64,000 bases of DNA from Xestospongia muta (lineage: Eukaryota; Porifera; Demospongiae; Haplosclerida; Petrosiidae). Positions 1 to 64,000 of this stretch are shown one piece after another. The position numbers and the translations under genes are program-made. Position 1 is the first letter of the stretch, and every line of letters starts with the position of its first letter. The stretch lies in assembly GCA_963693285.1 (NCBI GenBank), contig OY848927.1:4206643-4270642 (forward strand). The letters are read 5' to 3'. The notes below the pieces were generated by a model. That model worked only from the letters and a program-made list of their open reading frames with translations. It did no database searches and was not told where the DNA came from.

Positions 1-3000
1 CATTGCCATGACAACCAACAGATGTCATATGTACTGGTCCAACTCCTCTTCCAAAGAATGCACCATACATTGGAATAGCTCCTATATATATAGAAGATAA
101 TGGTCACTTCATTGACTAGTTAATTCCTCACTTAATGTCTGATATCCAGCTTGTCTACATGTTACTAGAGCATCTTGTTCATCCCATCCATTACTACACA
201 CACTACCCCAGTATCCATCAAGACATATCTCAACTCTACCCTCATTTAACTGACTACCTCCAGACAAATGAATAGCTCCAACATTTGTACATGATTCTGT
301 AAAATAATAAAAAATAATGTATATTAATTATTAGTAATATCATACCTGACTGTGATTTTATTTGACAATCTACACCTGCTCTGATTTCATCATACCAATA
401 GCTTAAATGATTAGATGGGTTTTGATATGAACAACCACTCAATGATGTTTCATTTCCATTACAACTGAAATATTGATATCCAACTCTTTCACTTTTAGTT
501 TTCCAAATTATATCTGTGATAGCTACTGACCCTACAATAAGCTAAAGTATTCACTATCATATAACCAATTTATCTTACAATTGTCATAATATCCAAGTTG
601 TCTACATACAATTTTAGCATGAGAATAAGACCAATAATTTGCCTCTGTTGTCATCCATATTCCATCTATACATATCTCAACTTTGCCTTCATTATCACTT
701 TCACCATCCACTAAACGAACTGACCAATTAGTACAGTTGACTACATCTGTAGATACAGAGGATTATATGAGGATTATAAAGGAATCGTACTACTTTTACA
801 ATAGCATGTATTTGACCTGCACAATAGATTCCTGCAGTCACACTGTAATATCCATATGTATAGGTATCCTTTGAGCATTGACTTAAAGATGTTTCACTGC
901 CCATACAGTTAAATCTACCCCATACTAATGGTGCAATGTCTTGACTTCCTCCAAAGAATGAATATCGACTATAAACATTCCCTTCAAGCAAAAATAGTTA
1001 AAAACTGAATACTATTATTGTGGGCATTAAACTTACAGTTGTTGTTAGAGAATCCAAGTTGTCTACATGTAACATTCACATTTGCTATGGAATACCAGTC
1101 ATAACCACATATAAATCCCCACACTCCACTTCTACATATTTGTATATCTCCTTCATTCGGATTATTTCCTCCAATTAGTCTGATATCTCCTTCAGTACAG
1201 TATGTAGACTCTGATAGAATACATAAGTCATAATCACTGCAATTTTAATGATGACATTATCTTACTATAACATCTAACTCCAGCAGTACAACCAAAATAA
1301 CAGGCTAAACTAGGATTATATTGATAACTACATGATAGTAGAGATGTCTCTGAACCACCATTACTACATTGGACATTCCAAATAAGCTGTTGTAAATTTC
1401 CATCTCCAAATTGTGATGATGTATAAAATGATGCCCCTAGAATATCCACAGTTAATACTATGTATATACTAATGAATACAAGTTTACATGTTGGGTCATA
1501 TCCCAGTTGTCTACAAACAACTTGAGCATCTCTTCTGTCCCAAGAGTAATCACAGACAGTTCCCCATTCTCCATTGACACATATTTCTACTCTTCCTTCA
1601 TGTGGAGTGGAACCATTTACTAATCTAATGTTACCATGAATACAACCAATGGAAGCTATGAAAGTATATTGAATGATATAATATAAAACATAAAAAACCT
1701 TTTTTGATACACCTAACTCCAACATCAGTGGAGTGACTATACCAATAAGGATATAAGCCAAAACTACAGTCATCCAGAGTAAGTTCATTTCCATTACAGT
1801 CAAGGTTCACAAAAACAACAGGACCTGATCCTTGTCCATAGTTTCTAAATATCAGTACACCTATATAGAACAAAGTAAAGTTATCACAGTCCAGAGTACA
1901 TCTCAAAATTACGTGGTTTCTGATGACCTAACCTCCTGCAGACAACTTTCCCATCATTTACGCCAAAACCATAATAGGATACAGTCCCCCATACTCCATT
2001 ACTACAGTACTCTACTCTGCCCTCAACCTTATTAGGACCATTACGTCCAACCAGACGCATAGAACCATTTTTACAGCTCTCTGTGTGTGAACGTTACATG
2101 ATAGTGAACATTTTCATCGAAAAGTAAGTATTACCTGACACTATCATTCCTGTACATCTAATACGTGCTCTTTGATATTTACATGATGAACAAGAAGTGC
2201 TACTGCTATAAAAACAGTCCAATAAATTTGTTTCATTTCCAAAACATTTCCAGTTAGCTAGTGTTGATATTCCATGTCCAGTACCAAAGTAGTGAGATGA
2301 TAAAGACTGTGCACCTATATATACCAAACATCAACTGATATATATATATTAGTATTATTATTACCTGTTGCTGGTAGACCTAACTGTCTACAGACTACAA
2401 ATGCTTCTTGATAGTTAAAACCATTATAACACAGAGAAGTCCAAGCTCCATTATAACACACTTCAACTGTTCCTTCATTATGTACCAGTCCATCAGTGAG
2501 ACGAACATCACCTTGTGTACAGGAGTTAACTAGAATATAAAATCATGATAATTATGTGATTAGTAGTATAGTATCTATACCTGGACAGACCACACTAACA
2601 TCTTGTGAGTGAGAGCAAAAATAATAAGGATAGCCAATATCATGTTCTCTTGGACAATCCAATAGGTTACTCTCAGTACCAGTACAATAAATACGGTTTA
2701 ACCATATTGGTCCACTACCTTCTCCATAATATGCATTTTGAATGTATGTCACAGCTATTAAGTATTAAATTTATGTGGTAATATAATTTTCTCACTTTGT
2801 CCTCCATCCACTTCATATCCCAGTTGTCTACAAACCACTTTAGTATCATTAGTGTCAAAAGAGTCATCACATATTGTACCCCAAACAAAATTTATACAAA
2901 TCTCCAGTCTTCCTTGATTAGTGAGACCTCCATTTACTAACCTTAAAGATCCATGCTCACAGTTGACATTAAAAGTACCTGATGTAAATAAATAAAAAAG

Positions 3001-4500
3001 TCAAAGTTTAATAATAAGAGACCAAATAAGATTATTGAAATAAGATTTCCATAGTTGTATAAAGAGATGTTGTACATTAATTGGACATTCATTGAGTTTT
3101 CTACCTAGCATGCTATAACTGCTAGAGGTGATTTCTGACATAGTTTTTGCTCTTCTGTGCATGTTCACATATGGGTGTGTCCATTTACAGTTTCAATTTA
3201 TTGTTATGAATCTTTTGAGAGTGTTAAATATAATTAAGTTGCTTACAATATCCACCAACACACATAAAATAACAATCAATGAATATTATTGCTTTTTCTG
3301 TAAACACTTTCGATTGGGATTAATACTTCTAGTTGTCTAGCTCAAGAAAATGTCTTTGAATAGTTTTTCAAATTTTTTGTAACTATATATCCAGATATCA
3401 AAATAATCTTAGGATGATTTACAATTACTTACGTTATTTTGTAAATTATTTATTTCAAATTATATTAAACAGTCCTATAATTCTTTTGGTATATTGTACA
3501 TACTGTTATTTAGTATCTTCATTTGTATAATTATAGTATGTGACAATTGATATAATAACTGCATACCTTCACTACCAAAATTATTAATACAAATAGCAAC
3601 CATAAATAGCTGGTGTCAAATTAATAATGCAATAATAGGAGTGGTTTACTACCGACTGTGCATTGTGCACTCAGGTGTTTAGAGTTTTGGAAGATATTGG
3701 GATGGATCTAGTAACAGTATAAAATATAGTATAATACTGATAATACCATTCCCATAATCATTAAAACATTTTGACACAAACAGCATGCCAGAGCTTAAAG
3801 CCAAAGTGCTGTGAAAACAGGTGACGCATCAGAATTTCAAATTCTTTTACAAAACACATTGGTGAATATTCAGTTATTTCTCCTATAGTGTAAGTATCAT
3901 ATTACATGACCTTTAATATTTGGATTAATCCAATTAATAATTTAAAGAGTTTGTAGCATGACAATCTTACCTTTTACCCAGTACAGTTGTGAAATCAGAA
4001 ATATTAGTATCCAATTCTTCAACTAAAGTAAATAAAGATAAGCTAACCTCAACACAATAAAGTCAATTTTAGGGATTACATTAAGAATTCTTAAACCAGA
4101 TATTTGTGATTTTATTAAAACATCCTGGGCCTAAACTATTAAAGCGAAATAGAATATGACATCAGTACATATAAGCATATCGGCTATAACCTTACACCTA
4201 TATAATATTATGAAGTAGGATGCTAGACTGTGAGGATTTATAATGTCTTAGTTCACTATATTGACATTTGTACATCTATTCATTGATATTCATCAAAAGC
4301 ACATACAACATATAAATAGATAAAGGATTACTTACTATTCTTAAATTTAACAAAAACTAAACATGCAGTCTAAATACATACACATATATATTTAACATGA
4401 TATTTTGCACTCTGCTGACAATAATATGATAGCAATAATTTAAGTTAGTGATCATGATCTTATATGTAATGTTCTTTACCTTAACAGATGAATGCTGCAT
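1..4500 (-). CDS. Receptor gene A: signal peptide + seven SRCR domains (3' part off the left edge)
   Basis: Partial SRCR receptor gene, read right to left. Exons: 4480-4500 (ATG at 4500), 3971-4022, 2796-2978, 2581-2754, 2365-2529, 2135-2314, 1913-2080, 1699-1860, 1488-1655, 1266-1436, 1037-1210, 817-981, 579-746, 346-531, 132-296, and 81 to beyond base 1. The first two exons join as MQHSSVKLKNWILIFLISQL..., a signal peptide, and splice in phase 1 to GTFNVNCEHG. Each SRCR domain uses two exons: the first carries VEIC...VC...VCRQLGY, the second G.G...L..C.G.E..L..C...V.C. Domain 7 is cut by the window edge, so Ig, transmembrane and tail parts are not visible. SRCR2 is the most divergent of the six copies (LCYNGFNYQ where others have VCDNNWGYQ). 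Intron 2 is about 380 bases longer than in the other copies and has a stop in the frame that other copies leave open, so only the spliced upstream start works here. Known SRCR relatives (DMBT1, CD163) bind microbes or proteins; ligand unknown. Confidence 0.88.
3269..3673. other. Insertion of about 400 bp in intron 2 of gene A
   Basis: Between CACACATAAAAT and TTTAGAGTTTTGGAAG, gene A has extra A+T-rich sequence that B to F lack. No terminal repeats or coding potential were recognised. Confidence 0.5.
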
Positions 4501-5381
4501 CTTTACTATGATTAGACTACTTCTATCTGTTGAGAAGTTAAGGATGAGAGGATCCTGTGTATTCAAGTAGGCATGCAATGGCTATTCGAACAGCACAAAG
4601 AAATTAATACTTATTCTAGCAAGCTAGTACCTCCTCCTTTATGATAAGCTGATGGGCAGTCTTATGGCACCAAGTGTAACACAACAAATGTCATATTATA
4701 CCCTAATAAAGTGATGCATACGTCATAATGTCACGTAACAAGAACTGAGCCATGGGGTCTAGAAGCAAATTTGGCTGTCTCATTGGAATGTGTGTGATGT
4801 GGTCATACTGTCATGAAATTACAATTGCTATATCTATCACACTGTTCATCTCAATAGCTTCAATGTATACATATCTCATTAGGAGATTTGTTTAAAATTA
4901 TGCCAAATTTAGCTTCTGCACATATTTGCAATTTTTGGTCTAGAGTTTTTCCTACCCAACTTACTGTGGTAGTGTTTTTATGCAAGCATTCATGAGAGAT
5001 GTTTAAAGTTTGACCAAAACTATGGTGATAAAAGCTTATCTTTATAGAGTGCACAATCTCATGTTATATACATGTCATTATTATTGCTATATATTATTAT
5101 ATCACTGTAAAAATTAATTTAATAAAATTAATCAGTTATTTTAAAAGTCAACTTGTAGCTTACATCAGTGGATTACTATGGAAACTAGAACTCATGATCA
5201 GTACTATATAATTTGTTGGTATGTTGTACTATTACAAAGCAACAAGTTATACAGTGAGTAATTCACATGAATTTTAATTCATAGTAATCCACCCTTGCCA
5301 TGTAAGCTATAAATTAGTTGTTAAAGAACATATTAATTTTTATAGAGTGCACAATCTAATGTTACATATATCATCATTATT

Positions 5382-63448: not shown

Positions 63449-63626
63449 ATATATATATATATATATTGTGTGTGTGTGTGTGTGTGTGTGTGTGTGTGTG
63501 TGTGTGTGTGTGTGTGTGTGTGTGTGTGTATGCATGTATGTATGTATGTATGTATGTAGGTATGTATGTATGTATGTATGTATGTATGTATGTATGTATG
63601 TATGTATGTATGTGTATGTATGTATA
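63449..63626. repeat. (TA)n-(TG)n-(TATG)n microsatellite (right of F)
   Basis: About 178 bases at the same homologous position as in the other units. Confidence 0.9.
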
Positions 63627-64000
63627 GACTATGTGTTTAGTTATTGTTAATCTTATGAATAGTAAGTAATCTTTTAGCTATTTATATGTTGTATGTGCTT
63701 TTGATGAATATCAATGAATAGAAGTACAACTGTCAATATATATTGAACTAAAACACTATAAAAACTCAGAGTCTAGCAAACTACTTCATAATATTGTATA
63801 GGTATAAGGATTATATAGTCAATAAGCCTATATGTACTGATTTCTTATTCTAATAATAACATAGTCAACCTGATAGTATCCTAGGATTGAAAACAGTATC
63901 ATATTTACTTTCAGTTTGTATCAAATAATTTGCTACATACTTGTAACCTGTACAACCATATATTGGTTAATCAATTTTTACAATGGTTCCCATATTTTAT

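What the first reader, a model, noticed from the sequence alone, without database searches (positions are those of the whole stretch)
1..64000. Six-gene tandem array of mosaic SRCR-Ig transmembrane receptors
Seen: six co-oriented paralogues of 15-26 exons in 11-12 kb units, with highly similar exons and gaps and all complete models intact. Known: SRCR and Ig families are used in animal immune and adhesion receptors, and SRCR genes are expanded in some invertebrates. Inference: this looks like an actively diversifying recognition locus (microbial or self/non-self) in a sponge-like animal.
Basis: partly seen in the sequence, partly recalled or inferred. Interest (0 to 1): 0.8.

Follow-up and report, generated by a model that had tools for sequence, protein, structure and literature searches.

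The report
Sponge SRCR–Ig receptor gene array
This stretch of a sponge-like genome is part of one cluster of about sixteen copies of a large cell-surface receptor gene whose likely binding faces differ from copy to copy, which suggests a diversified recognition system, although nobody has shown what it recognises.

Summary
All the receptor genes lie on the minus strand. Five models are complete from the first SRCR exon to the stop codon (19-24 exons, no internal stops, all GT-AG); a sixth is cut by the left edge. Each encodes seven two-exon SRCR domains, four or five Ig domains, one transmembrane segment and a tyrosine-bearing tail. The array is larger than the window: 16 units over about 150 kb, 12 of 16 with an intact SRCR-Ig exon set. 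The closest full-length protein among those listed is from Amphimedon queenslandica (52% identity), so the host looks like a demosponge.

The copies are mosaics: the nearest relative changes from domain to domain. Positions aligned with the known SRCR cation/ligand site are 2.7 times as variable as other positions (42 vs 748 sites; 0 of 20,000 permutations), mainly in SRCR 1-5. Control SRCR sets from the same genome show a weaker excess (1.7 times) and mostly keep the acidic triad (28 of 38 domains, against 6 of 84 here). Two tail classes occur.

"Diversifying recognition locus" is partly supported. Ligands (microbial or self/non-self), polymorphism and expression were not testable. Leader exons of the window genes were not found.

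The parts
1..2978 (-). G1, 5' part: SRCR exons S1a to S7b (S7b crosses the left edge; the gene ends at -2446, outside the window)
9118..15224 (-). G2, class A receptor gene, 24 exons
   Evidence: 0 stops, 23/23 GT, 24/24 AG
12183..15224 (-). G2 seven SRCR domains, 14 phase-1 exons
   Evidence: Pfam on the paralogue G5 gives 7 SRCR stretches
10684..12138 (-). G2 Ig domains 1-4, one exon each
   Evidence: Pfam on G5 counterparts
10292..10637 (-). G2 first membrane-proximal module (J1+E1)
9977..10246 (-). G2 fifth Ig domain (similar to Ig4)
9464..9932 (-). G2 second membrane-proximal module and transmembrane segment (J2+E2TM); G5 counterpart has no Pfam match
9118..9421 (-). G2 cytoplasmic tail, class A
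20914..27122 (-). G3, class A, 24 exons (SRCR 23980-27122; Ig1-4 22480-23935; module1 22088-22433; Ig5 21773-22042; module2/TM 21260-21728; tail 20914-21217)
32910..37979 (-). G4, class B, 19 exons (SRCR 34890-37979; Ig1-3 33708-34842; Ig4 and TM in one exon 33293-33656)
   Evidence: S7a ends at 35110
32910..33246 (-). G4 cytoplasmic tail, class B: YEDM and YEPM ten residues apart, proline-rich stretch
   Evidence: in the 264 kb examined, matching tails only near -54.8k and -63.5k
43559..49687 (-). G5, class A, 24 exons (SRCR 46631-49687; Ig1-4 45133-46586; module1 44741-45086; Ig5 44426-44695; module2/TM 43914-44382; tail 43559-43871)
55575..61001 (-). G6, class A, 21 exons (SRCR 57931-61001; Ig1-4 56423-57886; module/TM 55918-56378; tail 55575-55875)
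18090..18122 (-). G2 leader-exon relic (LITLLVLYFEG), start codon lost; TATAAAA upstream; same relic for G1 at 6183-6215
16046..17523 (.). repeat insert with inverted-repeat arms upstream of G2's first SRCR exon; related sequence in other array units
30866..31707 (-). fragments of Ig1, Ig2 and Ig3 exons between G3 and G4, two of them with a stop inside

Best explanation
This is the middle of a single-locus, tandemly duplicated family of large membrane receptors of a demosponge. SHOWN: seven SRCR + four or five Ig domains + one TM + a tyrosine-bearing tail; 16 units; duplication and domain-scale sequence exchange; raised amino-acid variation at positions aligned with the conserved SRCR cation/ligand site, mostly in SRCR 1-5; absence in SRCR 2-7 of the acidic D-D-E triad that holds a ligand-binding cation in DMBT1; two tail classes on similar ectodomains. 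INFERRED: SRCR 1-5 form a variable binding face held out on a conserved SRCR6-7/Ig stalk. Binding is less dependent on divalent cations than in typical scavenger SRCRs (as noted for CD6). Different copies bind different ligands, most likely surface molecules of microbes or particles met during filter feeding and symbiosis. The tail tyrosines drive uptake (YxxL/YxxM also fit endocytic signals) or SH2-dependent signalling (the two YxxM of class B fit PI3-kinase docking; motif meanings recalled), so similar ectodomains feed different outputs. Probability: a diversified recognition-receptor family about 0.75; ligands chiefly microbial or particulate about 0.5.
For: Architecture. Single-locus family: 18 of 19 Ig3 matches, 20 of 21 Ig1 matches and 20 of 20 module/TM matches in the genome lie at C11:4.14-4.30 Mb. 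Mosaic exchange: (e.g. G7-G8 76-89% in SRCR1-5 but 96-99% in SRCR6-Ig2). Recent block duplication, 99.1% over 6.6 kb. Ligand-site variation: 0.41 vs 0.15, 42 vs 748 sites, 0 of 20,000 permutations, pN/pS 0.99 vs 0.54. Same-genome control sets: D-D-E triad in 28 of 38 domains, against 6 of 12 array SRCR1 and 0 of 72 array SRCR2-7 domains. Codon models: M2a over M1a, LRT 38.6 for SRCR and 19.3 for Ig, 28.8 for SRCR with per-exon trees. Constraint on G1-G7: omega 0.60 (0.50-0.70), no nonsense codon. Ligand-site residues and CD6 remark: PMC7043408, passages. SRCR genes in choanocytes and in responses to microbes: PMC7308585, passages.
Against: Omega at the ligand columns is not above 1 (0.85; LRT against 1 only 0.46), so relaxed constraint after loss of the cation site may explain much of the pattern. 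Sequence exchange between paralogues can inflate M2a tests. The control sets also vary more at these positions than elsewhere (pooled 0.166 vs 0.098, ratio 1.7, against 2.65 for the array); one of seven scorable control sets (C10_set3, four sequences) does so clearly (p 0.0026) and C10_set1 borderline (p 0.053). Controls were top hits to the Pfam SRCR model, hence biased towards canonical domains. Leader exons of the window genes were not found. No data on expression, polymorphism or ligands. Tail motifs are by eye.
Confidence: 0.6

Rival explanations
1. Self/non-self (allorecognition) or cell-adhesion receptors: the variable SRCR face and Ig stalk bind the same or a partner receptor on neighbouring sponge cells, and tail classes give fusion or rejection signals.
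For: Single locus with many similar transmembrane Ig-containing copies, domain exchange and two tail classes. CD6, the SRCR precedent for loss of calcium dependence, binds an IgSF protein on other cells (PMC7043408 passages; PMC4533223 abstract start).
Against: The A. queenslandica grafting transcriptome paper has no occurrence of SRCR, scavenger, immunoglobulin or Ig-like in its main text (PMC5450542, term search only). No polymorphism data here.
Confidence: 0.2
2. Relaxed drift: a scavenger family lost its cation site long ago, the freed loops drift, and copies turn over by birth-and-death with conversion, without selection for diversity.
For: omega at ligand sites about 0.85, compatible with 1. 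Pseudogenes and truncated units in the same array. The D-D pair also looks absent from the seven SRCR domains of the A. queenslandica homologue P0004 (by eye), so the loss is probably old. Some control sets vary there too.
Against: Stronger constraint elsewhere (omega 0.40), variation concentrated in SRCR1-5 while the aligned positions in SRCR7 are nearly invariant, and M2a favoured even with per-exon trees.
Confidence: 0.25
3. The window genes G1-G7 are leaderless bodies, kept as a silent reservoir for conversion into leader-bearing units, or joined to a distant leader by splicing.
For: A leader exon with TATAAAA upstream stands next to the first SRCR exon in five left units (G0, Gm1-Gm4); relics without start codon in G1 and G2; no copy of it found for G3-G8. 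Three of those five units (G0, Gm1, Gm3) have broken bodies and Gm2 a broken TM exon.
Against: G1-G7 omega 0.60 and 0 nonsense codons, against roughly 12 expected per gene if neutral, indicates coding function; a missed first exon is the simpler reading. Gm4, Gm6 and Gm7 have a leader and an intact ectodomain. An unrelated candidate leader exists for G8.
Confidence: 0.07
4. Assembly artefact (haplotypes laid in tandem).
For: One two-gene block is duplicated at 99.1%.
Against: No N run inside the array; mean identity between copies is 81-94% per domain block and exon content differs.
Confidence: 0.03

Closest known systems
A. queenslandica 'SRCR domain superfamily protein-like isoform X2' (P0004)
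   Same: 52% identity over all of the 1239-aa query; SRCR and Ig Pfam families; the only hit for the Ig2-Ig4 region among 2954 candidates scored
   Different: That record ends after the fourth Ig domain, so no TM or tail to compare.
P0031, metagenome protein (JGI)
   Same: 42% identity over the whole query; seven SRCR stretches, Ig, a membrane-proximal region, TM and tail
   Different: Tail unlike class A or B; resembles the neighbouring gene G9
SRCR expansion and tandem arrays of A. queenslandica (Peng et al. 2024, PMC10855680; abstract, part 1 of 2 of Results and the Discussion read)
   Same: Demosponge SRCR genes, 158 of 296 in tandem arrays
   Different: Their detailed six-gene cluster has two to six SRCR domains, and sponge SRCR domains are described as mostly three exons each; here seven SRCR of two exons each, plus Ig domains. 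In the parts read, an SRCR-Ig array, ligand-site variation and tail classes are not described
WC1/CD163 family of vertebrates (PMC3511184 passages)
   Same: Multi-gene SRCR receptors with similar ectodomains on different tail types; the paired-receptor idea is raised for WC1; 8 stretches of CD163 match the SRCR1 query
   Different: No Ig domains and a different exon layout (recalled)
DMBT1/SALSA SRCR domains (PMC7043408, passages)
   Same: Same domain family; defines the cation/ligand positions used here
   Different: D-D-E site present in DMBT1 SRCR8, absent in SRCR2-7 here
FCRLS (PMC7940838 abstract start) and SRCR with Ig domains in sponge transcriptomes (PMC6208332 passages)
   Same: Ig and SRCR in one protein
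   Different: No such array or 7+4 architecture in what was seen

Membership tests
SRCR superfamily (PF00530) | SRCR domains above the Pfam cut-off | tested here: met
   G5 model: 452 bits, 7 stretches, cut-off 26.1
Immunoglobulin superfamily | Ig-fold domains by profile | tested here: met
   Ig1 and Ig2 pass Pfam cut-offs alone; Ig4 scores 25.4 against 27 and Ig3 at most 18 against 21, both below cut-off when scanned alone
SRCR group A vs B (exon and cysteine rule recalled) | two exons/6 Cys (A) or one exon/8 Cys (B) | tested here: inconclusive
   Two exons per domain but 8 Cys in SRCR1 by eye; fits neither rule cleanly
Cation-dependent scavenger SRCR (DMBT1-like) | D1019, D1020, E1086 equivalents kept | tested here: not met
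   0 of 72 in SRCR2-7, 6 of 12 in SRCR1; controls 28 of 38; the E1086 column of SRCR5 could not be aligned in that call
WC1/CD163 family | ectodomain of SRCR domains only (recalled) | tested here: not met
   four or five Ig domains present
Paired-receptor-like cluster | similar ectodomains on different tails | tested here: met
   class A (G1-G3, G5-G7) and class B (G4, Gm6, Gm7) tails
Paired-receptor-like cluster | opposite signalling polarity | not testable with these tools
   no biochemistry
Allorecognition complex (Alr/FuHC type) | high allelic polymorphism linked to graft outcome | not testable with these tools
   one assembly only

The most novel reading that the evidence does not exclude
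A demosponge has a paired-receptor-like recognition complex in which an ancient scavenger cation site was abandoned and the same SRCR face became a variable, antibody-loop-like patch (the SRCR5 loop even varies in length and is rich in Trp, Tyr and Asp in G4), reshuffled between copies by domain-scale conversion and coupled to two tail types. It would serve individual-specific recognition of symbionts or of self versus non-self.
Probability: 0.2. Interest if true: 0.85.

Novelty: new variant of a known kind. Interest (0 to 1): 0.5.

Why it matters
SRCR gene expansions in sponges have been known for years, and I know of no defined receptor-ligand pair for them (recalled). This locus offers a small, testable set: nine copies complete from the first SRCR exon to the stop codon, a named set of variable positions on a known ligand face, and two natural tail classes. 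If copies bind different ligands, it would tie SRCR diversity to recognition specificity in an early-branching animal phylum.

Tried and rejected
First gene finder chained all units into one gene; replaced by exon-by-exon homology models. A supposed leader 'FISMVYALG' was a splicing artefact of that finder. Leader search for the window genes: best candidate MPSICGKYIYLLYFIFPF in 4 units (G4-G7), 3.5-4.0 kb upstream, weak; the in-frame read-through MHSS[EL]NFCLLYLFTSG (G2-G7, 6 of 8 units, interrupted by a stop in G1 and G8) overlaps a good splice acceptor; neither adopted. Structure of the membrane-proximal module from a single sequence: mean pLDDT 35.9, discarded; my SEA-like impression is untested. 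Rfam on the window: 0 matches at gathering score. Naming the species through cox1 failed because the service was busy.

Dropped rows and uncertainty: the C3 control set was left with two sequences after L046 (no splice found) was removed, so it has no statistic; L068 was fetched but not used; control rows counted are 38 of 40 fetched. The alignments place N1081 of SRCR2 and E1086 of SRCR5 differently, so these two columns are uncertain. Only 150 of 4936 first-look SRCR candidates were scored, and the protein list shows 120 of 4521.
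Full report
Place and host. The window is G000:C11:4206643-4270642 of a 158-Mb assembly in 28 contigs without names. I fetched 110 kb to the left and 90 kb to the right; coordinates below are window coordinates, negative to the left. Among the 120 listed of 4521 database proteins, the closest full-length relative of the G5 ectodomain is from Amphimedon queenslandica (52% identity, 100% coverage). A metagenome protein (P0031, 42%, 100%) shows a like order including a membrane-proximal region, TM and tail. The window is therefore from a demosponge-like animal that is not A. queenslandica itself; the species was not established.

Gene models. Exons were found by aligning 26 reference exons to each of 16 units, requiring splice sites and an open frame. 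The five complete window genes carry 14 SRCR exons (seven domains, two phase-1 exons each), four Ig exons, then either J2+E2TM+tail A (G6), J1+E1+Ig5+J2+E2TM+tail A (G2, G3, G5), or Ig4 fused with TM plus tail B (G4). G4 needs the earlier of two donors in exon S7a to stay open. Introns have medians of 46-49 bp. Pfam finds seven SRCR stretches in G5; Ig1 and Ig2 pass cut-offs, Ig3 and Ig4 are recognisable but below cut-off alone; the module/TM exon and tail A of G5 have no match, and tail B only one below its cut-off. Each model has one strong hydrophobic segment before the tail; G5 and Gm7 show a second, marginal one inside the ectodomain.

The array. First-SRCR exons or remnants recur from about -58 kb to +84 kb. 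Of 16 units, 12 have all 14 SRCR and four Ig exons open (G1-G8, Gm2, Gm4, Gm6, Gm7) and four do not (G0, Gm1, Gm3 with stops; Gm5 lacking most SRCR1-5 exons). Nine of the 12 are complete to a recognised tail; G8 and Gm4 do not match tail A or B well, and Gm2's TM exon is broken. A divergent neighbour, G9, at about 91-97 kb has a like order and a tail resembling P0031. Genome-wide, 18 of 19 Ig3 matches, 20 of 21 Ig1 matches and 20 of 20 module/TM matches lie in this locus, fragments included; one Ig relic lies at C11:2.38 Mb. SRCR domains as such are abundant elsewhere (173 matches, a lower bound).

Exchange between copies. The nearest relative of each gene changes from domain to domain, with 3 to 8 different nearest relatives per gene over 11 blocks in 12 genes. 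G7 and G8 are 76-89% identical in SRCR1-5 but 96-99% in SRCR6-Ig2; G1 and G4 are 97% in SRCR1 but 70% in SRCR5. A two-gene block left of the window is duplicated at 99.1%. This fits tandem duplication plus conversion or unequal exchange at domain scale.

Constraint and variation. Mean pairwise dN/dS is 0.42-0.70 for SRCR1-7 and Ig1-4 (12 genes; Ig4 nine), 0.44 for the module/TM exon (eight), 0.71 for Ig5, 0.99 for E1 and 0.68 for tail B (three each), and 1.38 for tail A (six genes, 12 of 15 pairs with dN above dS). For G1-G7, omega is 0.60 (0.50-0.70) over 1175 codon columns; roughly 12 nonsense changes per gene would be expected without constraint and none is seen. Six residues that hold the two surface cations of DMBT1 SRCR8 (passages of PMC7043408) were fixed beforehand and mapped through a CD163 SRCR. 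Mean pairwise amino-acid difference is 0.41 at 42 such sites against 0.15 at 748 others, reached in 0 of 20,000 permutations; pN/pS is 0.99 against 0.54. By domain, in a second alignment: SRCR1 p 0.006, SRCR2 and SRCR3 0 of 5000, SRCR4 0.001, SRCR5 0.014, SRCR6 0.12, SRCR7 0.65.

Control. Eight sets of SRCR domains from other arrays of the same genome were treated alike. Seven could be scored: p 0.053, 1.0, 0.0026, 0.27, 0.49, 0.63 and 1.0. Pooled, the controls also vary more at these positions (0.166 against 0.098, ratio 1.7; array 0.397 against 0.150, ratio 2.65). The acidic D-D-E triad is present in 28 of 38 control domains, 6 of 12 array SRCR1 domains and 0 of 72 array SRCR2-7 domains. Controls were chosen among top Pfam hits and some sets are nearly identical, so the contrast is indicative, not a census.

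Codon models (own code). A two-partition model gives omega 0.85 at the ligand sites and 0.40 elsewhere (LRT 10.9 against equal omega; 0.46 against omega 1). M2a is preferred over M1a for SRCR (LRT 38.6; 8% of sites at omega 2.8; 5 sites with posterior above 0.9, 2 of them ligand sites) and for Ig (19.3), not for the module (0.5); tail A 8.8. With separate trees per exon the SRCR LRT is 28.8. Exchange between paralogues can inflate such tests, so I treat them as supporting only.

Tails. Class A ends in an acidic stretch with YxxL in several copies (DDDDLYEALYN in G6, DDDLYEGLYN in G5, DNDIYEPLYN in G3; YEAP in G2, a shortened end in G1). Class B has YEDM and YEPM in G4, YVDM and YEPM in Gm6, YEDM and YEPI in Gm7, plus a proline-rich stretch. 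That YxxM fits PI3-kinase docking and YxxL/M fits endocytic or hemITAM-like signals is recalled knowledge and was not tested.

Five-prime ends. A short leader exon (MKLLILIILLVLYFEG or close) with TATAAAA upstream lies just before the first SRCR exon in G0 and Gm1-Gm4 (start codon about 100-112 bp upstream in the four whose first SRCR exon could be placed), and a different leader in Gm6 and Gm7. In G1 and G2 a relic without start codon lies about 3 kb upstream, beyond a repeat insert; for G3-G8 no copy of this leader was found, though G8 has an unrelated candidate. As G1-G7 are constrained, I expect an unrecognised first exon; this remains open.

Known and new. Tandem SRCR expansion in sponges is published (PMC10855680: abstract, part 1 of Results and Discussion read). 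SRCR together with Ig domains in sponge or other invertebrate genes is mentioned (PMC6208332, PMC7308585; passages). In seven paper searches no listed title or abstract start described this architecture as an array, its exchange, or variation at the SRCR ligand site; subscription papers are mostly not in the library. I file it as a new variant of a known kind.

Noticed in passing
window 16046-17523 and corresponding places in other units: Repeat insert with inverted-repeat arms (139 and 46 nt) upstream of the first SRCR exon; a roughly 220-bp core matches many places of the genome on both strands.
   Followed up: partly
6183-6215 and 18090-18122: Leader-exon relics of G1 and G2 that have lost the start codon while the gene bodies stay intact.
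   Followed up: partly
-33603 to -27045 and -19615 to -13059 (left of the window): Block running from one unit into the next (a broken one), duplicated at 99.1% identity.
   Followed up: no
42391-42702 and 54485-54802, plus strand: Duplicated hydrophobic open frame of about 103-105 aa; the first copy has no Pfam match above cut-off.
   Followed up: partly
beside class B units (G4 side of the G3-G4 gap, and left end of the array): Fragments that look like a RhoGAP/FAM13-type neighbour gene, seen by eye in gene-finder output; suggests class B units carried part of a neighbour along when duplicated.
   Followed up: no
35992-36198 (G4 SRCR5, first exon): Ligand-side loop lengthened by a Trp/Asp/Tyr-rich insertion compared with other copies.
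   Followed up: no
G000:C10:1179831-1265550 and other control sets: Other SRCR arrays of this genome; 28 of 38 sampled domains keep the acidic cation triad, but C10_set3 and the C3 set do not.
   Followed up: partly
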